35,565 bases of DNA, taken from assembly GCA_014695255.1 (NCBI GenBank), contig JACJNX010000120.1, forward strand, positions 1 to 35,565. The letters run 5' to 3'. Positions 12,713 to 35,309 of this stretch are shown here, in pieces. The notes under the pieces are model-generated. The model saw only the letters and a program-made list of their open reading frames with translations, had not been told where the DNA came from and did not search any database. Each line of letters opens with the position of its first letter. Within the stretch, counting starts at the first letter, position 1. The DNA is from Cyanobacteria bacterium FACHB-63. GTDB taxonomy: Bacteria; Cyanobacteriota; Cyanobacteriia; Leptolyngbyales; Leptolyngbyaceae. Made by a program: the position numbers and the translations under genes.

Positions 12713-14281
12713 ATGTCAGACTCAATTCTCGCTTGGAATGAAGTAGCACTCGAAGCTAACCGCATCAGCCACACTGAGGCTGATAAGAGAGAGCAAAATG
12801 GACCTACGCTCAGCTCACGCGCCTTAGCGATCGTCCATCTGGCGATGTATGACGCCTATGCTCACATCAAAGGGAATCCATCTAATTTACCGCCCTACCT
12901 ACCTGGACTACCGCCTGCTCCCGCCAATGCGTCACCACAAGCGGCAGTGGCAGGGGCAGCCTACGAAACGTTAAGAAGTCTATTTTCCCAGCAAACCGCT
13001 TTTTTTGATACCAAACTGGCAGAGCTCGGCAACCCCTCCGACCCTGGGCACGGATTTGGAGTGCAAGTCGCTCAGGCGATTCTAGCAGATCGAGCCAGCG
13101 ATCCGAGTGATAATTCTGATGGCTACATGCCCTCCCCTGAGCGATACCGACATCGCCCTGACCCCGACAACCCCAGTCAAGGGTTTAACGCACCGTTTTA
13201 TGGAGCGAAGTCTAAGGGATTCGCAATTACGAAGCGACACGTACTAGAGGATCCTTCACCCGGAGATGCTGACTATGTGAAGGCATTGAGGCAGGTGCGC
13301 CGCAAAGGCGTGATGCCTGAGTTGGTCGGAGCACTGCCTGAATCATTAGAGGTTAGACAACGAACCCCAGATGAAACTTTGGTTGGCATTTTTTGGGCTT
13401 ACGATGGTGCGATCGGGCTAGGCACACCACCACGCTTATACAATCAAATTGTTCGCCGAGTAGCGATTGCTAAAGGGAATACAGAAGATCAAAATGCTCG
13501 TCTGTTTGCCTTAGTAAACGTAGCAATGGGCGATGCTGGAATTTTAGCTTGGGATCAGAAGTACTTTCACGATCTCTGGCGTCCTGTTGTCGGGATTCGT
13601 GAACACGATCTCTCTTTCGGTCCAGCCGCAACCGAAGCGAACAGTGATATCTCAAACGATGGTGATCCGTTCTGGTTGCCGTTAGGTGCACCAAAGTCAA
13701 ACATTGTGAATCGAAGATTCTTCCCAAACGCCCCCATGGATCCTCCAACGAATCGCTCGTCCTCCCCATCCCGGGAGGAATTAGAAAGGGCCGGGGATGA
13801 AGACCCAAGGCGCAAATGTGCTGAATGCCTCACCTTAAACAAGAACTTCACGCCAAATTTCCCAGCCTATCCATCAGGACATGCAACCTTTGGGGCCGCT
13901 GCTCTGCACATCACACGGCTTTTCTATGATGTGAAAGCCGGCAACCACGAGCCTGATGATTTATTTGATGGACTCGATTTTGTCTCTGATGAGCTTAACA
14001 GCGGAACTGCGAAGCTTGAGGGCGGCACTGAAGACAGTAGAGGCACTGTACGCCCCACTCATCGTCGCGAGTTTCCTGGTGGCCTGTGGCAGATGATTAT
14101 TGAGAACGGACTCAGTCGCGTTTATCTCGGCGTTCACTGGGTTTTTGACGCCTTTAAGGTTAAACAGAATGGCGAACCTGACCTGTCGAAAAGAGTTGGA
14201 GGTGTTCCGCTTGGTCTGGACATCGCGGAGGACATCTTCAGTAGTGGCATGAAAAAGTCACCAGTCAGTTCACGTATCTAA
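12713..14281 (+). CDS. Vanadium-dependent haloperoxidase-like protein
   Basis: This 522-residue protein belongs to the vanadium haloperoxidase / PAP2 acid phosphatase superfamily. All vanadate-binding residues of the haloperoxidases are present: Lys283 and Arg290 in QKYFHDLWRP, Ser388-Gly389-His390 in YPSGHATFG, and Arg469 with His475 in SRVYLGVHW. Their spacing (K to R 7, R to H 6) matches fungal and bacterial enzymes. In the family these oxidise halide with hydrogen peroxide to hypohalous acid; some members are phosphatases instead, and halide choice cannot be read here. No signal peptide is seen, though other routes of export are possible. The gene stands alone, with a 14-bp hairpin after its stop. 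A weak AAGAAG precedes the start. Confidence 0.88.
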   Translation: MSDSILAWNEVALEANRISHTEADKREQNGPTLSSRALAIVHLAMYDAYAHIKGNPSNLPPYLPGLPPAPANASPQAAVAGAAYETLRSLFSQQTAFFDTKLAELGNPSDPGHGFGVQVAQAILADRASDPSDNSDGYMPSPERYRHRPDPDNPSQGFNAPFYGAKSKGFAITKRHVLEDPSPGDADYVKALRQVRRKGVMPELVGALPESLEVRQRTPDETLVGIFWAYDGAIGLGTPPRLYNQIVRRVAIAKGNTEDQNARLFALVNVAMGDAGILAWDQKYFHDLWRPVVGIREHDLSFGPAATEANSDISNDGDPFWLPLGAPKSNIVNRRFFPNAPMDPPTNRSSSPSREELERAGDEDPRRKCAECLTLNKNFTPNFPAYPSGHATFGAAALHITRLFYDVKAGNHEPDDLFDGLDFVSDELNSGTAKLEGGTEDSRGTVRPTHRREFPGGLWQMIIENGLSRVYLGVHWVFDAFKVKQNGEPDLSKRVGGVPLGLDIAEDIFSSGMKKSPVSSRI

Positions 14282-25930: not shown

Positions 25931-27699
25931 ATACTGGTGGCGAAACATTGCTTAACTTTCGGATTAAGCCATCAATCTAGCGAACTGCGAAATTCGTGTG
26001 GTTATTTGTGGCACTCCAGATATCCAGTAGAAGATGCGCTTGAAGTTGATAGCCGTTGCCGTCATCAAGTGCTGTAGATGAGTTTTCGCTAAGCCAATAT
26101 ATCGAGCGCGACGGAGACCATGAGCACGAATGCCTTCCGATAGCGTTGCTTCAATTCCGGCTCGTCGAGCATAGTTGACCTTGTAGTCATCCGTCAGTGC
26201 TTGTTGTCGTGCGGCTTGTAATGCTTTGTGCTGCTCTTCTGGGCGCAGGGTGATAGTCCGGCGCTTTTCTTTGGTACGAGTACACAGCTGTAAGCTTGGA
26301 CAACTTGCACAATCAGGTCGGGCAAACTTGATTTTAATCACCTGATTGTTGCGACCATCAATGGCAGGAGTCCAAGAAGTACTGGCTTTGCCTTCAGGGC
26401 AGGTGACCACTTGCTGCTGCCAATCCACTTTGAAATCGCTGGCTGCGAATCCATTTCCTGCTCTTGCTTGCCAGCGGATATCTGAGCGAGGTGGTCCAAG
26501 TAATTCTACTTCGTGCTGTGCTTGGGATGTGACTAGTAAATCTGCGTCAAGATATCCAGTATCGACAATGTGCTTGTTTGGAAGCAGATTTTTCTGGGCG
26601 AGTGAAGCATGAATCGTTTCAGTCACGTCTCCATCCGCAATCGGTGCTGCTGTTGTTTCAACATTGGTAATCAGATGTGGCGAGTCGGGTTCGCAAGTTT
26701 CACTCAAGTGGACTTTGTACCCCACCCATGAGGTTGTGTGCTTTTTTGCATAGTGAGCATCCAAATCGTAAGGTGAGCTAATCATGATGGTAGCAGGTGG
26801 AATCCCCTGCTCGGTTCGCCAATGAAGCTGACTATCACAAACATAGTATTGCTGCACCCACACTCGTCGCAGTGTTTCGACGGCTGGCACTTGTCGTAAC
26901 CAGTCAGGACTGTTACCCTCGAAAATCGCATCCAGCAGTTGTCTACCATCTTTGCCATAGATGAGTGCTTGCTGCTCTCGCCCTGCCTTTGAGGTGGGTA
27001 GGTGATAGTCTTCCATCCGCTCACTATACCGTTCAACCCATTCAGGTTGGCTTTGAGCTTTTAACCAAGCAGGTGCAAGGACTGCCACTGCATTCAGCGC
27101 AGCCCGCAACGTTTCTCCAGCGCATTCGAGTCGCGTCACTGCTCGGATAGCTGATAAAACATGAGTTGAGTCTGTGCGTTGGCGACCTCTCGCTTGCAGC
27201 CATCCTTGTTGTTGACACCAGATGAGCAGTTGATCAAATACTAAGCTCTCAGCATTTTGAGTGATCAAGCGAGTCCGAAATTCACTCAAAACAGTGTGGT
27301 CAAATCCTTTGTCGGTTAGCTCTAAACACAGTAGGTACTTCCAATCGATTCTGCTACGGACAGCATCTGCGGCTTGGCGATCTGTCAGTCCCTCAACGTA
27401 CTGTAAAATTGTGACTAAGGCTAAACGCAGTGGTGATGCTCCAGGTTGTCCTTGGCTGGAAAATAATGCACTAAAATCTTGGTCGCAGAGGAAGGAACTC
27501 AAACGGTCTGCCATCGTGATGCAAAGGTTGCCTTTGGGAAAGATAGCTCTCGCAACGTTAGCTGTTTCTGCTGGAACGCTATAGTTCTGTTCTGGATGCA
27601 GTGACATCGAGTCATACCTCGAATGCGATCATCTTTCAGATTCTAATCAAGCTTGATAGAACAGTCTTATTTTGTTAAGCAATGTTTCGCCACCAGTAT
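25931..27699. mobile_element. Complete IS1182-type insertion sequence (1769 bp)
   Basis: Perfect 26-bp inverted repeats (25931-25956, starting atactggtggcgaaac, and 27674-27699) enclose one transposase gene on the minus strand. The element is bounded by the 8-bp duplication caaaagag, so both ends are exact. It is inserted in the right end of an older ISL3 element. Intact ends and gene suggest recent arrival. Confidence 0.93.
25964..27607 (-). CDS. IS1182-family transposase
   Basis: This 547-residue DDE transposase has an N-terminal DUF772-like region (ADRLSSFLCDQDFSALFSSQ, LRLALVTILQYVEGLTDRQA). The catalytic core follows, with RTDSTHVLSAIRAV (first Asp) and KHIVDTGYLDADLLV (second Asp). The C-terminal DDE_Tnp_1_6-type region contains the Cys motif CASCPSLQLC and RAGIEATLSEGIRAHGLRRA (Glu). 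It fills the element between its terminal repeats and looks complete. Confidence 0.93.
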   Translation of the reverse strand: MSLHPEQNYSVPAETANVARAIFPKGNLCITMADRLSSFLCDQDFSALFSSQGQPGASPLRLALVTILQYVEGLTDRQAADAVRSRIDWKYLLCLELTDKGFDHTVLSEFRTRLITQNAESLVFDQLLIWCQQQGWLQARGRQRTDSTHVLSAIRAVTRLECAGETLRAALNAVAVLAPAWLKAQSQPEWVERYSERMEDYHLPTSKAGREQQALIYGKDGRQLLDAIFEGNSPDWLRQVPAVETLRRVWVQQYYVCDSQLHWRTEQGIPPATIMISSPYDLDAHYAKKHTTSWVGYKVHLSETCEPDSPHLITNVETTAAPIADGDVTETIHASLAQKNLLPNKHIVDTGYLDADLLVTSQAQHEVELLGPPRSDIRWQARAGNGFAASDFKVDWQQQVVTCPEGKASTSWTPAIDGRNNQVIKIKFARPDCASCPSLQLCTRTKEKRRTITLRPEEQHKALQAARQQALTDDYKVNYARRAGIEATLSEGIRAHGLRRARYIGLAKTHLQHLMTATAINFKRIFYWISGVPQITTRISQFARLMA

Positions 27700-27725
27700 C
27701 AAAAGAGCGTAAGAGCCCAAAAAGC

Positions 27726-28052
27726 GCCGGACGCGACAGATTTCTACGCTGCTTCAATCTTTACCGATCCCAAAATCCTCAAGTCCATAAGACTGGAAGT
27801 ATCCCTCATTTGTCACTCTCGCTAAAGCGAACTCTAAAACCTAGCGATGGCGCGGGTTTCCTATTTTGAGGGCTTGAAAACGATAAAAGAGCAAAACGCA
27901 AGTATAGCAATGCTTTCAGCTTTTACTTCTTCCAAAGTGACAAATGAGGGATAATTGAGGTAGTTCAATGAAAGCGCGGCAATCAAATGAACAAGGTGAG
28001 GTTCAAAGGAGTTTGAATGCTCACTTTACCCTTAGCGCCCCTACTGAAGAGA
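27726..28052. other. Intergenic stretch after the nested transposon, holding a MITE-like copy
   Basis: These 327 bases lie between the ISL3 duplication and the 3-prime end of the redox operon. They hold the MITE-like element at 27800-27952 and no gene I can support. No clear terminator is visible for the operon. Confidence 0.55.
27800..27952. mobile_element. MITE-like element, copy B
   Basis: An element of about 153 bases starts tatccctcatttgtcact and ends agtgacaaatgagggata. The ends are near-perfect inverted repeats of about 17 bases. The interior matches copy A at 19888-20042 along its length, in the same orientation. It is non-coding and bounded by TA. Confidence 0.78.
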
Positions 28053-28730
28053 TCATCCTTCTCGTAGTGTATATCCGACTCCACGTACTGTATGAACTAG
28101 GCGAGGTTCGTGATTTTCCTCTAGCTTTAATCGCAAGTAGCGAACATAGACTTCAATAATATTGGAATCGCCCACAAAGTCGTAACCCCAAACGTTTTCG
28201 AGAATTTGCTCTCTCGTAAAAACTTGCCTAGGGTGACTCAAAAGATACTCTAATAAATCAAATTCTTTGGCGGTTAACTCGATCGCTCGAGTGCCACGAT
28301 ACACCTCACGCGTTTTGCGGTTCAGTGTCAAGCCTTCAAACTGCAACACATCCTCATCGCCGTCTTGATTACGCCGCAGATGGGCACGCACTCTTGCCAG
28401 TAATTCCTCAATACTAAAGGGTTTGACTACGTAGTCATCAGCTCCCGCATCTAATCCGGTGACGCGATCGCTTACCTCATCTCTTGCTGTCAACAAAATC
28501 ACGGGCACTTTGCTCCCCGTTGATCTTAAGCGGCGACACAGTTCGATTCCTGACAAGCCCGGAAGCATCCAATCGAGAATTGCTAAATCAAGTGTTGCTT
28601 CACGAGCAAGGGTCAACCCCGCCATGCCATCGTGTGCGATACTGACTTGATACCCTTCGCTCACTAACTCTAGCTCAATGAATCGAGCGAGTTTTGCTTC
28701 GTCTTCGACTAGGAGAATGTGGGCACTCAT
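28053..28730 (-). CDS. OmpR-family response regulator of the redox cluster
   Basis: This 225-residue DNA-binding regulator has a receiver domain at residues 1-115 (ILLVEDEAKLA, phospho-acceptor Asp53 in LAILDWMLPG, Lys in DDYVVKPFS). A winged helix occupies about 128-225 (ELTAKEFDLLEYLLSHPRQV, VYVRYLRLKLE, TVRGVGYTLRE). It is the last gene of the seven-gene minus-strand run and starts 2 bases after the kinase stop, so it is surely co-transcribed with its kinase. The likely targets are its own operon promoter upstream of the lipoprotein gene, and perhaps others. Confidence 0.93.
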   Translation of the reverse strand: MSAHILLVEDEAKLARFIELELVSEGYQVSIAHDGMAGLTLAREATLDLAILDWMLPGLSGIELCRRLRSTGSKVPVILLTARDEVSDRVTGLDAGADDYVVKPFSIEELLARVRAHLRRNQDGDEDVLQFEGLTLNRKTREVYRGTRAIELTAKEFDLLEYLLSHPRQVFTREQILENVWGYDFVGDSNIIEVYVRYLRLKLEENHEPRLVHTVRGVGYTLREG

Positions 28731-28732
28731 GG

Positions 28733-29878
28733 TTAAGATCCTAACGTGGGTAGCGTCAATGTAAAAATGGTGCCTTTGCCTGGATTAGAGTCAAGAGAAA
28801 TGGTGCCTCCCATTTTTTCGATTAAGGTTTTCACGATCGCCAGTCCTAATCCTGTGCCTCCAGTAGCACGAGTGCGAGACGGATCAAGGCGGTGGAAGGG
28901 TTGAAACACTAGAGCGTGTTGTGATTGCGGAATGCCATCTCCGCGATCTCTAATTTGAATGATTGCCGAATCACTAACTTGATTAAGTTCAATCAGAATT
29001 GGAGTGTCATGCTCAGAATAGCGAATCGCATTTTGAATTAGATGATCGATCACTTGCATCAGGTAATCCCGATTTGTTTGAACGCGAACCGGGAAGGGGG
29101 TGATCTGAGTTTCGATCGTGCGATGGTCAAATTTCTCGCTCATATTGGCGATGTCGCGCACAAACTCATTGAGAATGAGCAGTTCTTGAGACACCAAAAT
29201 GTCAAGGCTTTCTGCCCGTGCTAAATCAATGAGATCTTGCAAAATGAGTGTCATCCGTTCCGCTTCTGCGGCTGCCATCGCTAAACGTTCCTGCTGGGCT
29301 TCGGGCAGGGCTTGACTACGTTTTGAAGTGCGTTGCAGATAGCCATGGACCAAACTAAGGGGCGATCGCAACTCGTGTGCCACATTGTTGATGAATTGAT
29401 ACTGCTGATGGTTGACTGCTGCCTGTTGGGTCAATATTTCGTTCCAATGATGCGCTAAAGCTCGAATCTCGCTAGGAGCATGACGTGCGTTGAATCGCTC
29501 GGGGGAATTACCTGTCGTTGAGCCTGTAACCCACTGACTAAACCGACGCAAAGGCTGTAGATATCGCCAAACAACTCCCAAAACGGCAATCATCATTGTG
29601 CTCATTGAAAGTAGACCGATCGCAGTTAAGTGATCGGCAATTGCAATCAACTGAGCAGCGGTAAGACGCTCTGGTTGCATCATCAATAGCGTTTGCACTG
29701 CCCAATGGCTGAAAACTTTGTAGCTCATGAGCGCGATCGCACAAATCCCCATGACACTCGCCATTAATCGGAACTGCAACGAAGCAGGATCAAAGAATGC
29801 CTGCCTCTTGTCAATCCACGGATTTGAACTCTTATTCAGCCGACTCATGAACTCACCCGTAGAGAATGTGCTGCTCAT
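28733..29878 (-). CDS. Membrane sensor histidine kinase of the redox cluster
   Basis: This 381-residue kinase has two membrane helices: the first near 35-55 (LMASVMGICAIALMSYKVF), the second near 88-110 (LLSMSTMMIAVLGVVWRYL). The extracytoplasmic loop between them is only about 30 residues. A HAMP-like linker follows, then HisKA with His in NNVAHELRSPLSLVHGYLQ and the HATPase domain (LIQNAIRYSEHD, IRDRGDGIPQSQHALVFQPF, GGTGLGLAIV). A second possible ATG 10 codons downstream (29848) has a GGTGAG-like site. It pairs with the OmpR-type regulator 2 bases downstream. The short loop suggests it senses something in or at the membrane, or via a partner such as the lipoprotein or cytochrome b. Confidence 0.92.
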   Translation of the reverse strand: MSSTFSTGEFMSRLNKSSNPWIDKRQAFFDPASLQFRLMASVMGICAIALMSYKVFSHWAVQTLLMMQPERLTAAQLIAIADHLTAIGLLSMSTMMIAVLGVVWRYLQPLRRFSQWVTGSTTGNSPERFNARHAPSEIRALAHHWNEILTQQAAVNHQQYQFINNVAHELRSPLSLVHGYLQRTSKRSQALPEAQQERLAMAAAEAERMTLILQDLIDLARAESLDILVSQELLILNEFVRDIANMSEKFDHRTIETQITPFPVRVQTNRDYLMQVIDHLIQNAIRYSEHDTPILIELNQVSDSAIIQIRDRGDGIPQSQHALVFQPFHRLDPSRTRATGGTGLGLAIVKTLIEKMGGTISLDSNPGKGTIFTLTLPTLGS

Positions 29879-29936
29879 TCCAGACTAATCTGAAATTCTG
29901 AAGATCGCTTGCTGATTTTGGATGGAAACGGTGAAG

Positions 29937-30638
29937 TCACAATCCTCCAAACCACTCGTACCCTTGATCTTCCCAGTATCCTTTGGTCGGCATCAACTGA
30001 TTCGTCAGCATGATTTGAGTGACCCATTTACTTTGTTTGTAGCCCAGCTTAATCGGGGAAGCTAGACGCAAAGGCGCACCATTATCAACGGATAAAGGTT
30101 GCCCATTTTTCTGGTATGCCATTAGCGTCTGCGGGTGTATTGCAGAGGCTAAATCCCAACTCTCGTAGTAGCCATCAGCAGATTTAAAGTAAACATAGCG
30201 AGCACTGGGTTTGGGTTGGGCTAATCGCAGGAGTTCGCGCAGTCGAACGCCGCCCCACTGCACGATCGCAGCCCATCCTTCGACACACACATGCTGAATT
30301 ACCATTGATGTAAGCGGCAATGCCTGAAGATCCGCCAGACTGAGTTGCATCGGATGATTGACTTCACCTTCAATGTGTAAGCGATAGCGTGTCGGATCAA
30401 TCTGCGGCGTTTGATCAAATGTGTTGATCAGAAGTTTGTCTGGCTCGATCGCACTGACTGGAAATTCAGGCACAGGTTTCTGGCTGAGTAACAAGGTTTG
30501 CGTTGCTTGATTGAGTGGCTCAAAGGCTTTTCCAATTTCGCTTGATCCCAAACTTGAATCACAACTACTAAGCAGTAAACTGGCACTAGAAAAACCAGAC
30601 CACTGCAACCATTGACGACGAGAAATTGGCTTAAACAT
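29937..30638 (-). CDS. Tat-exported molybdopterin-dependent oxidoreductase (sulfite oxidase / MsrP-like)
   Basis: This protein of about 233 residues has the sulfite-oxidase-type molybdopterin fold. The N-terminus SRRQWLQWSGF is a twin-arginine signal, and LLSSC (Cys26) is a possible lipobox, so it may be a Tat-exported lipoprotein. The molybdenum-ligating Cys is Cys118 in IQHVCVEGWAAIVQWGGV. Further signatures are YFKSADGYYESWDL, MAYQKNGQPL, and GAPLRLASPIKLGYKQSKW. The ATG at 30638 (AAGG upstream) is preferred to an upstream TTG. The gene starts 13 bases after the cytochrome b stop; this pairing resembles MsrPQ (YedYZ), which reduces methionine sulfoxide in the periplasm. The substrate here is inference. 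Confidence 0.88.
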   Translation of the reverse strand: MFKPISRRQWLQWSGFSSASLLLSSCDSSLGSSEIGKAFEPLNQATQTLLLSQKPVPEFPVSAIEPDKLLINTFDQTPQIDPTRYRLHIEGEVNHPMQLSLADLQALPLTSMVIQHVCVEGWAAIVQWGGVRLRELLRLAQPKPSARYVYFKSADGYYESWDLASAIHPQTLMAYQKNGQPLSVDNGAPLRLASPIKLGYKQSKWVTQIMLTNQLMPTKGYWEDQGYEWFGGL

Positions 30639-30651
30639 CCTTAAATCACCC

Positions 30652-31260
30652 TTAAACAAACATCGATTTTATGAGGCGGATACTGCCTACTCTTAATGCC
30701 AATAATGAGTGAATGAACGTAAATAAGATAACGGTAGGAACAGCAATGAAATGAATTGTGCGAAGCGTCTGCCAATTCAAAAACAAGCTAGATAACCAAT
30801 AGAATTGAGCAGGTTTGTACATTGCTAAGCCAGATGCGATCGACAGCACTAAAATTGGAATAATTGCTGTGTAAACAAATCGATGAAGCGCGTAATTTTT
30901 GCGCTTAGCATTTTGGCTCACTCGCAGTGCCTTAATATCGCTTCCATTCGCAAATCGTTTTTGCCAACGACGTGAGATTAGTACGTATAACCCATACCAC
31001 AACAGATTTAACGCATAAAACCACATGGCAGCAAAATGCCAACTGCGCCCGCCTCCTAACCATCCGCCCAGTGTTAAAAAGCTGGGAAAGTGCCAGCCTT
31101 CGCGCCCGCCAAATACTGGATTCGCGTTGTAGATCTGTAATCCACTCAACAGCATCACAAACAGACTAATGAGATTTATCCAGTGGAAGATTTTTGCTAG
31201 AAGTGCTTGCGTTGGAATGGGCGGCAATTTTGAACGTTTCACGGGCATTGCAGAAGTCAT
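30652..31260 (-). CDS. Cytochrome b561-type membrane protein
   Basis: This protein of about 202 residues has four or five membrane helices and His residues placed as heme ligands: AKIFHWINLISLF near the N-terminus, WHFAAMWFYALNLLWYGLYV, NYALHRFVYTAIIPILVL, and TIHFIAVPTVILFTFIHSLL. The ATG at 31260 has an AGGA site; a longer frame would overlap the CcdA-like gene. This class of b-type cytochrome passes quinone electrons to exported molybdenum enzymes. Here its likely partner is the molybdopterin enzyme encoded 13 bases downstream, a role like MsrQ though from a different family. Confidence 0.88.
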   Translation of the reverse strand: MTSAMPVKRSKLPPIPTQALLAKIFHWINLISLFVMLLSGLQIYNANPVFGGREGWHFPSFLTLGGWLGGGRSWHFAAMWFYALNLLWYGLYVLISRRWQKRFANGSDIKALRVSQNAKRKNYALHRFVYTAIIPILVLSIASGLAMYKPAQFYWLSSLFLNWQTLRTIHFIAVPTVILFTFIHSLLALRVGSIRLIKSMFV

Positions 31261-31277
31261 GATGAGAGTTCCTGATT

Positions 31278-31973
31278 CTAAATCGAAAACGTTGGAAAGA
31301 ATGGAGCAAGCCAAAGCTGAATTTGGACATCCCAGCCCAGCAGAATTGAGAGTGCTGTCATAATCACGATCGCACCTCCAACTTTCTGAAAAGTTGCACC
31401 ACGACGACGCAACCCAAGCAATTGTTGACCGAATTTTCGCCCACCATACGAGATCGCAAGGAGTGGTAACGCCGCCCCAAGACCATAAGCTAGCAGTAAG
31501 CTAAACGCACTCATGACTTGGTGATGGACGGCTGCTAGCCCTAAAATTCCTCCTAAAACAGGTCCCGCGCAGGGTGTCCACAGCAGTCCCAATTGAGTTC
31601 CTAACCAAAACTCTCCCCATAGTCCAATTCGGTGACGTTCCTTTACCCAGTGCTGAAGCGGCAGGTAGCTCAATAGCCGATAGCTCCAGTTTGGAAACAG
31701 CGTGAGAATGCCGAGAAGTAGAAGGAGTACGATCGCGCCATATCGTAAAAAATTAGCGAATCCAGTGAACCAGCTTGCACTGATGCCGAGTAAACTCCCT
31801 GCCACCGCAAAGCTGCTCACCAAACCGGCGATGAGGGCTACCGGACCATAGCGATGAGACTGTAATGATCGACCCACCAACACTGGTAGAATCGGTAATA
31901 CACAAGGTGATAAAACTGTTAGAATGCCAGCTAGAATAGAAATTTGAAAAGAAAGTGTCGATAAATTCATCAC
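31278..31973 (-). CDS. ccdA: CcdA/DsbD-like transmembrane thiol-disulfide carrier
   Basis: This 231-residue membrane protein has about six helices. The two redox Cys of the family are present: Cys24 in LSPCVLPILPVL and Cys135 in WTPCAGPVLGG. Family members carry reducing power from cytoplasmic thioredoxin across the membrane. A GRK loop and further helices follow. It lies 40 bases after the thioredoxin-like gene and 17 bases before the cytochrome b gene. The likely role is to reduce the exported thioredoxin-like protein next door. In cyanobacteria CcdA also serves cytochrome c maturation, so other targets are possible. Confidence 0.9.
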   Translation of the reverse strand: MMNLSTLSFQISILAGILTVLSPCVLPILPVLVGRSLQSHRYGPVALIAGLVSSFAVAGSLLGISASWFTGFANFLRYGAIVLLLLLGILTLFPNWSYRLLSYLPLQHWVKERHRIGLWGEFWLGTQLGLLWTPCAGPVLGGILGLAAVHHQVMSAFSLLLAYGLGAALPLLAISYGGRKFGQQLLGLRRRGATFQKVGGAIVIMTALSILLGWDVQIQLWLAPFFPTFSI

Positions 31974-32013
31974 AAAAGAGGAGTATGAATGAATGCTAGT
32001 GTGAATCGAAGCG

Positions 32014-32625
32014 TTAGCTTTCTTTCAATAGCTGTAGAATAGCTTGCTCAGTCGTATCGTAAGCGCCTTCTCCAATGTGGTCGTAGCGCATTAACCCACG
32101 TCGATCTGCCAAAAACAGGTGAGGCCAATACTCGTTGCTGTAAGCCTTCCATGTTTTATAATCGTTATCGATCGGCACAGGATAAGTAATATGATGCTGC
32201 TGAATGGCCCGTTTGATGTTGTTCGGATCGCGTTCAAATGCAAATTCTGGTGTGTGAATACCAATCACTTTTAACCCCTGTGCTGCATATTGGTGGTGCC
32301 ATTGAGTAATGTAAGGCAGCGTGCGCTGACAATTAATGCAGGCAAACGTCCAAAACTGGATTAAGACAACATTTCCTTTGAGGTCTGCGATCAACAGAGG
32401 ATTTGAGTTTAACCACTGCTGAATCCCCTGAAAATCAGGTAGAGTCTTTCCAGTAGCAGCTAGAATAGCAGTCTCCGGTTTGGTCGCAGCAGGAGTTGGC
32501 AAAATTGTTGATGTCGGATTCTTCTGCTTAGCGCCCAAACCAGAAGCAGTTGCTGCACCTGCACCAAGTACGCCTAGCCCTAGATAAAATAAGAGTTGAC
32601 GACGCTGACGAGAAACCTTGTCCAT
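32014..32625 (-). CDS. Membrane-anchored or exported thioredoxin-like protein (TlpA/DipZ type)
   Basis: This protein of about 203 residues is preferred from the ATG at 32625, which has a GGGAG site. A basic start (DKVSRQRRQ) and one hydrophobic segment (LLFYLGLGVLGAGAATASGL) form an uncleaved anchor or signal. The C-terminal 140 residues are a thioredoxin-like domain with active-site Cys96-Ile-Asn-Cys99 in FWTFACINCQRTLPY and the cis-Pro region NEYWPHLFLADRRG. WTFxCxNC motifs are typical of the DipZ/TlpA class. It likely acts in the periplasm or thylakoid lumen. Its electron donor is presumably the CcdA-like protein; its target may be an oxidised thiol or sulfoxide protein. Confidence 0.9.
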   Translation of the reverse strand: MDKVSRQRRQLLFYLGLGVLGAGAATASGLGAKQKNPTSTILPTPAATKPETAILAATGKTLPDFQGIQQWLNSNPLLIADLKGNVVLIQFWTFACINCQRTLPYITQWHHQYAAQGLKVIGIHTPEFAFERDPNNIKRAIQQHHITYPVPIDNDYKTWKAYSNEYWPHLFLADRRGLMRYDHIGEGAYDTTEQAILQLLKES

Positions 32626-32737
32626 CAAATTCTCCCAGAATGAAGGATGGATCGACCACTTGCACAATTGTCAACTCAGTCGGCTTAACTTGTGGGCAGT
32701 CGATCAACGAATATTATTTAGATGAAGTTTGGTGCAA

Positions 32738-33019
32738 CTAGGGTTGTGTAGGTGTTTCTTTTTTCATGGCATCACCATCTTTTTTCATCGCATCGGGTTG
32801 TTTCATGGCATCACCATCTTTTTTCATCGCATCAGGCTGTTTCATGGCATCACCTTGCTTCATCGCATCAGGCTGTTTCATGGCACCAGGCTGAATTGTA
32901 CTAGCAGCACTCGGAGCAGGTGCAGGTTGCTGACTATCTACTTTCGGAGTACTAGAGCAAGCAGCGAGGCTACCTACCAAAGCTAAGCCAGCGATTAAAC
33001 TAATAATTCTTCCGTTCAT
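32738..33019 (-). CDS. Methionine-rich lipoprotein with D-A-M-K repeats
   Basis: This small protein of about 93 residues is taken from the ATG at 33019, with a GGA upstream; an alternative ATG lies at 33031. The signal sequence (MNGRIISLIAGLALVGSLAA) ends in a lipobox LAAC at Cys21, so it is a predicted lipoprotein. After a Pro/Ala/Ser linker come seven repeats containing A-M-K (GAMKQP, DAMKQG, DAMKQP, DAMKKDG and so on) to the C-terminus. It resembles pentapeptide MXKDX-repeat proteins. Methionine-rich exported proteins of this kind scavenge hypochlorite in Azospira, repaired by a YedY/MsrP enzyme. It is the first gene of the seven-gene run, so a similar role is plausible. Confidence 0.85.
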   Translation of the reverse strand: MNGRIISLIAGLALVGSLAACSSTPKVDSQQPAPAPSAASTIQPGAMKQPDAMKQGDAMKQPDAMKKDGDAMKQPDAMKKDGDAMKKETPTQP

Positions 33020-33292
33020 GATTGTTGTCATCCAGAGTATAAATTGAACTTGTGCGATCGATCAGTGAAAATTGCTCAACCAACCGAACTTCTAACAACT
33101 GAAGTGTGCTGTTTGAGACTGAAGCTCGCCTGAACTTAACCCGCAAGTTTCCTAAATTTATGGGTTAAAGGTTCTCACGTTAGACTCAGCGTTTTCTCAG
33201 GTTGCTGTGCTGTTTATCACGAAAATCTCTAGAGTAATGGCTTAAGGCAATACGATTGAATGCTTTTGGTACAGCGTCGACTTTAGGCTATG
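33020..33292. promoter_or_regulatory. Leader and presumed promoter of the redox operon
   Basis: These 273 bases precede the lipoprotein gene. They hold a short palindrome (cttaaccc ... gggttaaag, about 33137-33170) that could bind a regulator, and one arm of a 36-bp inverted repeat at 33224-33259. No certain -10/-35 pair can be fixed by eye. Confidence 0.4.
33224..33259. repeat. 36-bp inverted repeat, left arm, flanking the GAF kinase gene
   Basis: It starts aatctctagagtaatgg and ends aatacgattga. Its reverse complement lies at 34586-34621 with one mismatch. Together the arms enclose the GAF histidine kinase gene: this arm begins about 34 bases after its stop. Confidence 0.85.
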
Positions 33293-34528
33293 CTAAGTGC
33301 GAATTCTCGGTAATTGAACGGTAACACGAGTCCCAGAATCGTCGGATTGAATCAGTAATCGCCCCGCGTGAGCCTTCACAATTTGGTTGACGATCGCCAG
33401 TCCCAGTCCTGTTCCTTGCGGTTTGGTTGAAAAGAAGGGGCGACCTAGTTTTGACAGCACATCTGGCAAAATCACCTCACCCTGGTTCCGAACTCGAATA
33501 CCAACGAAGGTCGATTCTAAAGCTTCAATTTCGCAATCAACCGCTTCTCCCAGCGGGCTAGCTTCACAGGCATTGCGAAGAATGTTAATCATCACCTGCT
33601 TAAGTTTGTCGCGGTCTCCCAAGACTTTAATTGGCTCAAAAGTGCGAGTGAAATTGATTTGCCGCCCCTGTGCTTCTGGCAGTCCATCTATTGAAATTAA
33701 TACAATCTGCAGCCAGGTACTTAGCTCCAACTCCTCAAGCTTTGCAACTTGGGGTTTCGCATAAGTAAGCAGTTCACTCAACAGGCGATTGAGACGGTTG
33801 GCTTCGCTAATTGATAGCGCCAACCGCTCCTGTGCGAGGTCGATCTGCAACTGCTTTTGAGCATAGTTCAATCCCATTGTTATTGTTGTTAAGGGATTAC
33901 GAATTTCATGAACAAGCATGGCAGCAAACTCTCCGATCGCGGCTAACCGTTCCTGCTCCATTAATTTTGTTTGTGCTGCTTCTAACTCAGCGGTGCGAAG
34001 CGCCACTTCTGCCTCAAGCCGCTCGTTAAATTGGAGCTGTAGTTGATAGAGATGGTAATTATCGATCGCGGTTGCTGCCCGTTCTGCAAAAAGTTCTGCG
34101 GTGTGAATGTCTGAATCAGTAAATTGCTGTGGCTGACGATTAAATGAGCAAATCGTTCCGATCGTTTCGCCTTGAGCAGTTCGCAGTGGCACACCAAGAT
34201 AACACAAATATCCACCAGGGACTTCGCCTGCCTCTGGATTTTGCCGCACGTCTTCAACGGTGAGTGTTTGTCCCGTGGTAACCACCGTATTGGTGACAGA
34301 CCCATGCAGTGAAAAAAGCTGATCCATGCCCTCAAAATCAAGGCTGCTTGCCAACACTTGCTCAAATCCGTTTTGACACAACGTAACGGTTGACCAATTG
34401 ATCTGCAATAACTGACTGACACTGAGCGTTATTTCTTTGAGATAACTTTTGAGATCACCAGTACGATAGCTTAGCGTCGATAAAGATTCTAGAATGCGTT
34501 GCTCGTACAGTGTGAAGTCCCTTTTCAT
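33293..34528 (-). CDS. GAF-domain sensor histidine kinase
   Basis: This 411-residue soluble kinase has a GAF domain at residues about 20-160 (GDLKSYLKEITLSVSQLLQI, GYLCYLGVPLRTAQGETIG). A coiled coil follows (about 165-200, NERLEAEVALRTAELEAAQT). HisKA has its His in MLVHEIRNPLTTITMGLNYA, and the HATPase domain shows INILRNACEASP, GRPFFSTKPQGTGLGLAIV and VTVQLP. GAF domains bind small ligands or bilins, but no bilin-binding Cys can be assigned here. The gene is upstream of the redox operon on the same strand but is separated by about 260 bases. It is flanked by 36-bp inverted repeats, an unusual arrangement. Confidence 0.92.
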   Translation of the reverse strand: MKRDFTLYEQRILESLSTLSYRTGDLKSYLKEITLSVSQLLQINWSTVTLCQNGFEQVLASSLDFEGMDQLFSLHGSVTNTVVTTGQTLTVEDVRQNPEAGEVPGGYLCYLGVPLRTAQGETIGTICSFNRQPQQFTDSDIHTAELFAERAATAIDNYHLYQLQLQFNERLEAEVALRTAELEAAQTKLMEQERLAAIGEFAAMLVHEIRNPLTTITMGLNYAQKQLQIDLAQERLALSISEANRLNRLLSELLTYAKPQVAKLEELELSTWLQIVLISIDGLPEAQGRQINFTRTFEPIKVLGDRDKLKQVMINILRNACEASPLGEAVDCEIEALESTFVGIRVRNQGEVILPDVLSKLGRPFFSTKPQGTGLGLAIVNQIVKAHAGRLLIQSDDSGTRVTVQLPRIRT

Positions 34529-34779: not shown

Positions 34780-35309
34780 GTTTATGCAGCATCTTTCACA
34801 CTCGAGTCGGTTGGTGAGAGTTTTCAGCTCGATTGTTCAATCCCTTGTGCTGTCGATGCTCTACGCTCGGCATCACTCGTTTCTTTGCTGCTTCGTAACT
34901 CTTCAGCTTGTCGGTCACAATCACCCTGGCACAAAGCCCTGTTGCTTCAGCAGCTTACGGAAAAATCGCTTTGCTGCCTTGGTGTCTCGATGGCGTTGCT
35001 AAGACATCCAGCACGTTTTCCTCACTGTCCACGGCTCGCCACAGATAATATTGTTGCTTCTTAATCGTCTACCACCATTTCATCGAGATGCCATTTGTCC
35101 GTGATGTAGGGACGCTTGCGTCGCACTTGATTCGCGTATTGCTGCCCAAATTTCTGGCACCATTCCCGAATCGATTCGTAGGTCACCTCAATCCCGCGAT
35201 ACAGCATCATCTTCTCGATATCCCGGTAACTCAGCGGAAAAGTGTAGTAAAGCCACACACAATAACTAATAATTTCGCCGGGAAATCGATGACGGGAGTA
35301 CATGGGCAA
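34780..35309 (-). pseudogene. IS6-family transposase, frameshifted
   Basis: The minus strand opens MPMYSRHRFPGEIISYCVWL, with FPLSYRDIEKMMLYRGIEVT, typical of IS6/IS240 transposases, and reaches KWHLDEMVV, which carries the first catalytic Asp. A small indel near 35065 ends this frame. The family sequence continues in other frames as IKKQQYYLWRAVDSEENVLD, RHRDTKAAKRFFRKLLKQQG, VIVTDKLKSYEAAKKRVMPS (second Asp) and LNNRAENSHQPTR (Glu). At least three shifts or stops are present, so it is inactive. Confidence 0.85.

What the first reader, a model, noticed from the sequence alone, without database searches (positions are those of the whole stretch)
28053..33019. Seven-gene redox operon: Met-rich lipoprotein, thiol relay, cytochrome b, Tat molybdenum enzyme and own two-component system
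Seven genes run head to tail on one strand with gaps of 2 to about 110 bases. The lipoprotein has seven A-M-K repeats, the molybdopterin enzyme has a twin-arginine signal and its Mo-ligand Cys, the b-type cytochrome can feed it electrons, and CcdA-like and thioredoxin-like proteins offer a thiol path. In Azospira a methionine-rich periplasmic protein scavenges hypochlorite and is repaired by a YedY/MsrP enzyme under dedicated control. This cluster looks like an independent build of the same idea: it uses a b561-type cytochrome rather than MsrQ, a lipoprotein scavenger, an added thiol relay and a kinase/regulator pair.
Basis: partly seen in the sequence, partly recalled or inferred. Interest (0 to 1): 0.78.

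Follow-up and report, generated by a model that had tools for sequence, protein, structure and literature searches.

The report
Cyanobacterial methionine-sink and repair operon
A cyanobacterial gene cluster seems to make a methionine-rich membrane-anchored protein that soaks up oxidants, plus a molybdenum enzyme and cytochrome that could restore it, under its own stress sensor; the core set has known relatives in proteobacteria, and this version adds a thiol relay and a switch that other strains have exchanged.

Summary
The seven-gene array is real: lipoprotein (LIP), thioredoxin-like (TRX), CcdA-like (CCD), b561-type cytochrome (CYB), Tat-exported molybdopterin enzyme (MO), histidine kinase, response regulator; gaps 2-115 bases. 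LIP-TRX-CCD-CYB-MO recurs in cyanobacteria. MO does not qualify as MsrP: it shares with other b561-linked enzymes a Tat signal plus lipobox (119 of 120 rows), so enzyme and scavenger are probably both membrane-tethered. Cytochrome b, MO and a Met-rich protein also sit together in proteobacteria, and a uropathogenic E. coli version with its own two-component system protects against peroxide (PMC8550376). So it is not an independent build of MsrPQ/MrpX but a new variant of a known kind. Added here: a split-DipZ thiol relay; a conserved operator, CTGAG-N6-CTGAG, upstream of the cassette (20 of 25 LIP loci, 1 of 55 others), also found beside a paralogous regulator; an ECF-sigma/RskA pair in five relatives, none with the exact operator; and 24 loci, mostly Nostoc, that lost the cassette but keep MO under strong selection. 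The thiol relay cannot feed MO or LIP by thiol exchange (no free cysteines); its target is unknown. Methionine-sulfoxide reductase activity is inferred. A vanadium chloroperoxidase homologue lies on the same contig.

The parts
33174..33200 (-). Operator-like direct repeats with 11-base period, CTGAGAAAACG-CTGAGTCTAACG-TGAG
   Evidence: exact CTGAG-N6-CTGAG at 33185-33200, one-mismatch copy at 33174-33189; conserved in six aligned upstream regions; 20 of 25 LIP loci, 1 of 55 others
33119..33134 (-). Second operator-like repeat TTCAGGCGAGCTTCAG
   Evidence: the same composite lies upstream of the paralogous response regulator on contig C59
32738..33019 (-). LIP: methionine-rich lipoprotein, 93 aa (alternative upstream ATG at 33031)
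   Evidence: the MXKDX model TIGR02953 matches 8 of 17 family members at E<=1 but not this one
32762..32884 (-). Stretch of seven AMK repeats of LIP
   Evidence: sequence printed
32014..32622 (-). TRX: TlpA/ResA-like thioredoxin-fold protein with CINC (Cys95, Cys98); plasmid relatives, where annotated, are mostly DipZ
31278..31973 (-). CCD: CcdA/DsbD-TM protein, Cys24 and Cys135 its only cysteines, six TM-like stretches
30652..31260 (-). CYB: b561-type cytochrome with four invariant His (26, 75, 170, 184)
29937..30638 (-). MO: Tat-exported molybdopterin oxidoreductase with lipobox Cys26 and Mo-ligand Cys118 (alternative TTG start at 30659)
28733..29878 (-). HK: sensor kinase whose extracytoplasmic loop is cut to about 20 residues but keeps MMQPE
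28053..28730 (-). RR: OmpR/PhoB-type response regulator; 88% identical paralogue on contig C59 of the same genome
33293..34528 (-). HK2: GAF-domain histidine kinase next to the cassette; membership uncertain
   Evidence: 81% identical gene in L002 and 78% identical paralogue on contig C59

Best explanation
A membrane-tethered methionine redox-cycling operon. Oxidants reaching the envelope (hypohalous acids, peroxides) oxidise the exposed methionines of the lipoprotein, which acts as a sacrificial sink. MO, a Tat-exported, probably lipid-anchored molybdoenzyme of the YedY/MsrP fold, reduces the methionine sulfoxides back with electrons that CYB takes from the quinol pool. In parallel CcdA and the TlpA-like protein (a split DipZ) carry cytoplasmic reducing power outward to a separate thiol target that is not in the operon. 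HK and RR sense the stress and RR switches the operon on from CTGAG-N6-CTGAG repeats upstream of the lipoprotein gene. Shown by sequence: gene content, recurrence, lipoboxes, cofactor ligands, conserved repeats. Inferred: sulfoxide reductase activity, electron direction, the lipoprotein as substrate, RR binding the repeats, the inducer.
For: Recurrence: of the 80 loci kept, 10 that I hard-coded as core type and one truncated locus were dropped; of the remaining 69, 25 have LIP and 22 of those 25 also have TRX and CCD. In 244 genomes CYB and MO share the same 35; CCD is in 7, all within the 35, beside CYB-MO in 6 of 7. Cross-phylum: Met-rich protein beside cytochrome b and MO in 4 of the 9 proteobacterial b561-linked plasmid loci that I opened (Rahnella, Caballeronia, Cupriavidus, Halomonas). 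Experimental precedent: C3566-C3568 with OrhKR; Brucella bcrXQP. Fold: best structural matches YedY/MsrP 1xdy/1xdq, E 1e-14 to 1e-13 (model mean pLDDT 70.7). Operator: 27 exact copies in 864,422 bases against 0-1 for each of nine controls; 20 of 25 LIP loci (in L047 on the reverse strand) versus 1 of 55 others; also before a same-strand run of four genes ending in HK-RR in G068 and before the RR paralogue on C59.
Against: No biochemistry. NCBIfam's MsrP cut-off is far from met (98 of 207 bits). 24 of 69 loci keep MO with no LIP, TRX or CCD and no intact CYB, and their MO stays under purifying selection (dN/dS median 0.083 versus 0.077), so MO is not tied to this scavenger. The second CYB-MO pair of the own genome has no LIP nearby. 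12 loci have TRX-CCD but no LIP by my search (5 of these with under 3 kb upstream), though two of the 12 (L008, L040) have another Met-rich secreted protein. Five of the 9 opened proteobacterial loci showed no Met-rich gene. In Limnospira a COG2041 gene pair called msrPa/b was repressed, not induced, by gamma rays (PMC8400943, passages); whether it is this family was not checked. The operator pattern also occurs elsewhere (21 in the own genome, control 13; some copies in all 22 genomes), and RR orthologues exist in genomes in which no LIP was found (G060, G005, G068), so the regulator is not dedicated everywhere.
Confidence: 0.6

Rival explanations
1. MO-CYB is a general periplasmic methionine-sulfoxide (or other S/N-oxide) repair system; the Met-rich lipoprotein is a bystander or metal/peroxide buffer that travels with it.
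For: 28 of the 35 genomes with CYB and MO have no close CCD; MO without its cassette is under the same purifying selection; G068, G125 and G167 keep a core-type CYB elsewhere that could serve an orphan MO.
Against: LIP stays with TRX-CCD-CYB-MO even where gene directions are rearranged (L054, L069, G129, G197) and Met-rich proteins sit beside the same pair in another phylum.
Confidence: 0.25
2. MO is a sulfite- or sulfur-oxyanion-oxidising dehydrogenase feeding electrons into quinone through CYB.
For: Same PF00174 superfamily; weaker matches to SorA/SoxC models and structures.
Against: Best matches are MsrP/YedY; the Mo-ligand motif is CVEGW as in MsrP, not ECSGN as in the SoxC row; SorA and SoxC cut-offs far from met (63 of 600, 64 of 420 bits); only PF00174 found in a short chain and no cytochrome c gene in the operon.
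Confidence: 0.06
3. The cassette is a metal (copper) or cytochrome-assembly system: a Met-rich lipoprotein as copper-binding protein, CcdA/TlpA for metal-site or heme assembly.
For: Met-rich stretches can bind Cu(I) (recalled); two proteobacterial relatives without a Met-rich gene lie near cueR and a heavy-metal ATPase.
Against: LIP has no His and no Cys beyond the lipid site; no copper transporter or cytochrome c gene among the seven genes; the closest characterised relative responds to peroxide.
Confidence: 0.07

Closest known systems
OrhK/OrhR-C3566-C3567-C3568 of uropathogenic E. coli (PMC8550376)
   Same: Two-component system, cytochrome B, molybdoenzyme 27.6% identical to MsrP and a Met-rich MrpX homologue; c3566-c3568 co-transcribed; protects against tert-butyl hydroperoxide (abstract and passages seen). 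An MO on E. coli plasmids is 40.8% identical to the window's MO (listing only; not fetched).
   Different: No CcdA/TlpA pair in the passages seen; the window has a lipoprotein sink and a different operator (theirs TCACA-N15-TGTGA). Identity to C3566-C3568 themselves was not computed.
Azospira MrpX/YedY1 under SigF/NrsF (Melnyk 2015, recalled, paper not held) and Brucella bcrXQP (PMC8315932, passages)
   Same: Met-rich scavenger with a YedY-fold enzyme under an extracytoplasmic stress regulator; five cyanobacterial relatives have an ECF sigma/anti-sigma pair.
   Different: The Brucella system is described as MsrQP-like; the cyanobacterial anti-sigma is RskA-like.
E. coli MsrPQ with HprSR
   Same: YedY fold, Mo-ligand CVExW, two-component control; HprS is said to act through its methionine oxidation (review PMC13367049, passage).
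   Different: MO is shorter, carries a lipobox and lacks the MsrP C-terminal part; CYB is PF01292, not MsrQ.
DipZ and CcdA-Etrx-MsrAB relays (PMC3914529, abstract and outline)
   Same: CcdA plus an extracytoplasmic thioredoxin-fold protein; a fused CcdA-thioredoxin protein lies beside CYB-MO in G175 and DipZ beside msrB in a Rhizobium.
   Different: No thiol-dependent Msr among the seven genes; the two halves are separate genes.

Membership tests
MsrP/MsrQ | NCBIfam MsrP equivalog score above cut-off | tested here: not met
   98 bits against cut-off 207
MsrP/MsrQ | Mo-ligand Cys in CVE(A/G)W and YedY fold | tested here: met
   alignment; Foldseek best hits 1xdy/1xdq
MsrP/MsrQ | soluble Tat substrate without lipobox, with the MsrP C-terminal extension | tested here: not met
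   lipobox-like Cys in 119 of 120 family rows, absent from L151 (annotated MsrP) and L152 (MsrP-like by alignment); the window's chain ends at GYEWFGGL
MsrP/MsrQ | MsrQ partner | tested here: not met
   CYB matches only PF01292 in Pfam
b561-linked Met-rich/molybdoenzyme module (OrhKR-C3566-8 kind) | adjacent cytochrome b, YedY-fold enzyme, Met-rich exported protein and envelope regulator | tested here: met
b561-linked Met-rich/molybdoenzyme module (OrhKR-C3566-8 kind) | methionine-sulfoxide reduction and oxidant protection | not testable with these tools
   needs enzyme assay and mutants; the reductase is called putative for C3566/C3567 too
MXKDX repeat protein (TIGR02953) | match to the curated model | tested here: inconclusive
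   8 of 17 LIP homologues match at E<=1, best 1.5e-25; the window's own LIP does not
DipZ/CcdA thiol relay | CcdA Cys pair plus extracytoplasmic CxxC protein | tested here: met
   CCD Cys24/135, TRX Cys95/98; DipZ relatives
DipZ/CcdA thiol relay | thiol-dependent Msr recipient in the same operon | tested here: not met
   none among the seven genes; MsrA/MsrB genes lie on other contigs and the MsrA sequences printed show no evident signal peptide (by eye)
Sulfite oxidase/dehydrogenase (SorA, SoxC, SorT) | curated NCBIfam cut-offs | tested here: not met
   63 of 600, 64 of 420 and 29 of 570 bits

The most novel reading that the evidence does not exclude
A modular, self-regenerating, membrane-anchored methionine sink in which substrate and repair enzyme are both lipoproteins, the sensor kinase has been pared down to a short loop whose conserved Met-Met pair is itself the oxidant sensor, the regulator can be exchanged (two-component with CTGAG operator, or ECF/RskA) while the effector cassette stays, and the oxidant may be partly self-made: a vanadium chloroperoxidase homologue is encoded 14 kb away on the same contig.
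Probability: 0.15. Interest if true: 0.78.

Novelty: new variant of a known kind. Interest (0 to 1): 0.55.

Why it matters
The periplasmic methionine-repair systems in the papers seen here are proteobacterial, and the three paper searches made on this point (full text, open-licence papers only) listed no study of this cyanobacterial cassette; one listed paper discusses a Limnospira MsrP-like gene pair. The comparison points to a b561-linked, lipid-anchored molybdoenzyme kind distinct from MsrPQ and present in two phyla; gives a concrete candidate operator for a light-exposed organism's envelope-oxidant response; and offers natural experiments (regulator swaps, deletions that keep only the enzyme) for asking what the enzyme does without its sink.

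Tried and rejected
Rejected: membership in MsrP, SorA, SoxC or SorT (cut-offs); CcdA-TRX as electron donor to MO or LIP by thiol exchange (no cysteines); a regulator strictly dedicated to the cassette (RR orthologues at 75% or more also in G060, G101, G005, G008 and G011, none of which has a close CCD; LIP was searched in G060 and G005 only of these); sigma-70 and terminator scans of 27650-33400, not above shuffles. The MO tree (81 of 122 rows after thinning, no bootstrap) holds most cassette-type rows in a 40-row group of moderate support (SH-aLRT 90); outgroup branches are very long, SoxC and actinobacterial rows fell among the proteobacterial ones, and the program warned of long-branch joins, so it does not settle how the cyanobacterial and proteobacterial enzymes are related. 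L074 was hard-coded as core but falls in the cassette group. The LIP tally rests on an HMM plus hand criteria and misses Met-rich proteins of other build (L008, L040). The Fisher p of 2.9e-13 ignores relatedness. The 120 MO rows hold a few places twice (126 rows, 124 distinct). The haloperoxidase idea was tested by co-occurrence: at E<=1e-60, 2 of 244 genomes, the own one and G062; G062 is not among the 35 MO genomes, so linkage is not general. Only the best 80 of 427 related loci were returned. Of 10 allowed paper searches 9 were used.
Full report
What is there. Seven minus-strand genes at 28053-33019: LIP, TRX, CCD, CYB, MO, HK, RR, gaps 115, 40, 17, 13, 58 and 2 bases. Pfam: PF00174 (MO), PF01292 (CYB), PF02683 (CCD), AhpC-TSA/Redoxin (TRX), HisKA/HATPase (HK), Response_reg/Trans_reg_C (RR); LIP matches nothing above a cut-off. 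LIP has seven AMK in 73 mature residues; none of 20,000 shuffles reached seven.

MO does not qualify as MsrP. It scores 98 bits against the MsrP cut-off of 207 and far below the SorA, SoxC and SorT cut-offs. Nearest solved sequence and structure are E. coli YedY/MsrP (model mean pLDDT 70.7). It shares CVEGW at the Mo ligand but lacks the MsrP C-terminal part. A twin arginine followed by a lipobox-like Cys (a loose pattern) is found in 119 of 120 family rows. Dropped from that count were the truncated L080 and five outgroup rows; of the five, the SoxC row matched the loose pattern and the other four did not. The one family miss is L158. The only other cysteine of the window's MO is Cys118. CYB has four invariant histidines in 18 sequences from cyanobacteria and proteobacteria.

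Recurrence in cyanobacteria. The genome-contig scan kept the best 80 of 427 related loci. After dropping 10 loci that I hard-coded as core type and one truncated locus, 69 remain: LIP in 25, TRX with CCD in 34, both in 22. Among 244 cyanobacterial genomes MO is in 35 and CYB in the same 35; CCD in 7, all with MO, beside CYB-MO in 6 of 7, on another contig in G215. The own genome has a second, 66% identical MO with its own CYB and no LIP, TRX or CCD nearby. LIP homologues vary from 3 to 21 methionines in the mature part, and 8 of 17 aligned ones match the MXKDX model TIGR02953 at E<=1, best 1.5e-25.

The same module in proteobacteria. Rahnella: HK and RR, cytochrome b, MO, MXKDX protein. Caballeronia: sigma-70-family sigma factor, DUF1109 protein, cytochrome b, MO, MXKDX protein. 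Cupriavidus and Halomonas: Met-rich exported protein, cytochrome b, MO. Five other proteobacterial plasmid loci that I opened have cytochrome b-MO without a Met-rich gene found (L090, L091, L093, L149, L157), so 4 of 9, chosen by hand from the hit lists. In uropathogenic E. coli, OrhKR-C3566-C3568 has this content and protects against tert-butyl hydroperoxide (PMC8550376, abstract and passages). I did not fetch those genes; an MO on E. coli plasmids is 40.8% identical to the window's.

Thiol relay. The plasmid relatives of TRX, where annotated, are mostly DipZ. In G175 a CcdA-thioredoxin fusion lies next to CYB-MO. DipZ sits beside msrB in a Rhizobium plasmid; in three other regions opened it sits near hydrolase, two-component or peroxide-resistance genes without msr. 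Because LIP, MO and CYB have no free cysteines, the relay must serve something else; MsrA and MsrB genes exist on other contigs, and the MsrA sequences printed show no evident export signal (by eye). Precedent for CcdA-thioredoxin relays outside the cytoplasm: pneumococcal CcdA-Etrx-MsrAB2 (PMC3914529, abstract and outline).

Operator. Aligning the DNA upstream of LIP in six loci showed conserved CTGAG repeats with 11-base period and a TTCAG pair downstream. In L001-L080 (864,422 bases) CTGAG-N6-CTGAG occurs 27 times in 21 loci. Nine controls: reversed pattern 1; spacers of 4, 5, 7 and 8 bases 1, 0, 0, 1; four other pentamers 0, 1, 0, 0. TTCAG-N6-TTCAG, the second repeat type, occurs 15 times. 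The motif is in 20 of 25 LIP loci, 123-1516 bases upstream in 19 of them and on the reverse strand in L047, and in 1 of 55 others, L040 (reverse strand), which carries a different Met-rich secreted protein. In the window alone the pattern with one mismatch is not above chance (4 matches, shuffles mean 2.9); the case rests on conservation. In the own genome it occurs 21 times (control 13), 8 of them within 15 kb of contig C59, which carries paralogues of RR (88%), HK (64%) and HK2 (78%), with the composite CTGAG/TTCAG site upstream of the RR paralogue. In G068 an exact copy precedes a same-strand run of four genes ending in HK-RR; around the RR of G060, G125 and G167 no exact copy was found. 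In G167, where no close TRX or CCD was found, a copy remains about 550 bases upstream of CYB-MO. The pattern is not exclusive: all 22 genomes searched have some copies. That RR binds it is an inference.

Regulator swap. Five loci carry ECF-sigma and RskA-type anti-sigma genes near LIP: L054, L069, L164, and G129 and G197, which I picked for checking because they lacked a close RR. None of the five stretches (7-13 kb) has an exact motif. L069 and G129 are close relatives, so the five are not all independent. The Pfam names were tested for L164 (both genes), the L054 sigma and the L069 anti-sigma; the rest are by phmmer similarity to L164. G175 has the anti-sigma only and no LIP match. G193, the genome of L164, also has RR relatives at 65-67%.

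Sensor. Seven longer kinases have about 110 more extracytoplasmic residues than the window's and three near relatives; the short form keeps MMQPE or a close variant, and the first Met is invariant in all 11. The C59 paralogue reads MMYPE. HprS is reported to be activated by methionine oxidation (PMC13367049, passage), which makes this pair a candidate sensor, untested.

Against a strict unit. 24 of 69 loci keep MO but have no LIP, TRX or CCD and no intact CYB; 7 of the 24 hold a CYB remnant, and the breakpoints vary among the 15 of them that were compared (17 loci). In 23 such loci (22 of the 24, plus L038) MO has median dN/dS 0.083 over 228 of 253 pairs (pairs of unequal length or with dS 0.1 or less were skipped), against 0.077 over 45 of 45 pairs among 10 intact loci. 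The Mo-ligand motif is kept in all 33 (HICVEGW in three of them). G068, G125 and G167 keep a core-type CYB gene with no MO beside it, so an orphan MO could use it.

Verdict. A real, recurrent, apparently regulated cassette; most likely a membrane-tethered methionine sink with its repair enzyme and a parallel thiol line. Known kind (Met-rich/b561/YedY-fold with own regulator), new variant. Activity, direction of electron flow and inducer remain inferred.

Noticed in passing
window 12713-14281 (+): A vanadium chloroperoxidase homologue (PF17897 VCPO_N 74 bits; PDB vanadium chloroperoxidase E 2.5e-64; PAP2 just under its cut-off) on the same contig as the proposed hypohalite defence; at E<=1e-60 found in only 2 of 244 cyanobacterial genomes.
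   Followed up: partly
L194 (own genome contig C59:1-20000): Cluster with paralogues of RR, HK and HK2, eight exact CTGAG-N6-CTGAG sites, and NAD(P)/FAD oxidoreductase-, DoxX-, AhpC-, DM13- and Crp/Fnr-like genes (names by eye): a possible regulon hub.
   Followed up: partly
L009-L067 (24 loci, mostly Nostoc): LIP-TRX-CCD-CYB lost with varied breakpoints while MO stays intact and under purifying selection; core-type CYB genes without MO elsewhere in three genomes.
   Followed up: partly
L203:5567-5947, L203:4532-5287 and L206: A small secreted protein with no Pfam match and a DUF4079 membrane protein lie in motif-headed gene runs of some relatives.
   Followed up: no
L164:6177-6719: A DM13-domain lipoprotein-like gene sits between LIP and TRX in an ECF-type cassette; a similar protein lies near CYB-MO in G175.
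   Followed up: no
L008:250-816 and L040:3203-3859: Two other exported proteins with Met-rich repeats (MSKPGDS, MMKPGDS) precede cassettes that lack the usual lipoprotein: independent gains of Met repeats?.
   Followed up: no
L028:9340-9672: A second, partial MO copy in two frames lies after the response regulator.
   Followed up: no
window 25964-27607 and 35061-35309 (-): Transposase-like ORFs flank the cassette (by eye); a Kovacikia relative lies on a 1.2 Mb plasmid, so the cassette may be mobile.
   Followed up: no
L001: A contig labelled Tatlockia (MAG) carries an 83-88% identical TRX-CCD-CYB-MO and is probably cyanobacterial contamination.
   Followed up: no
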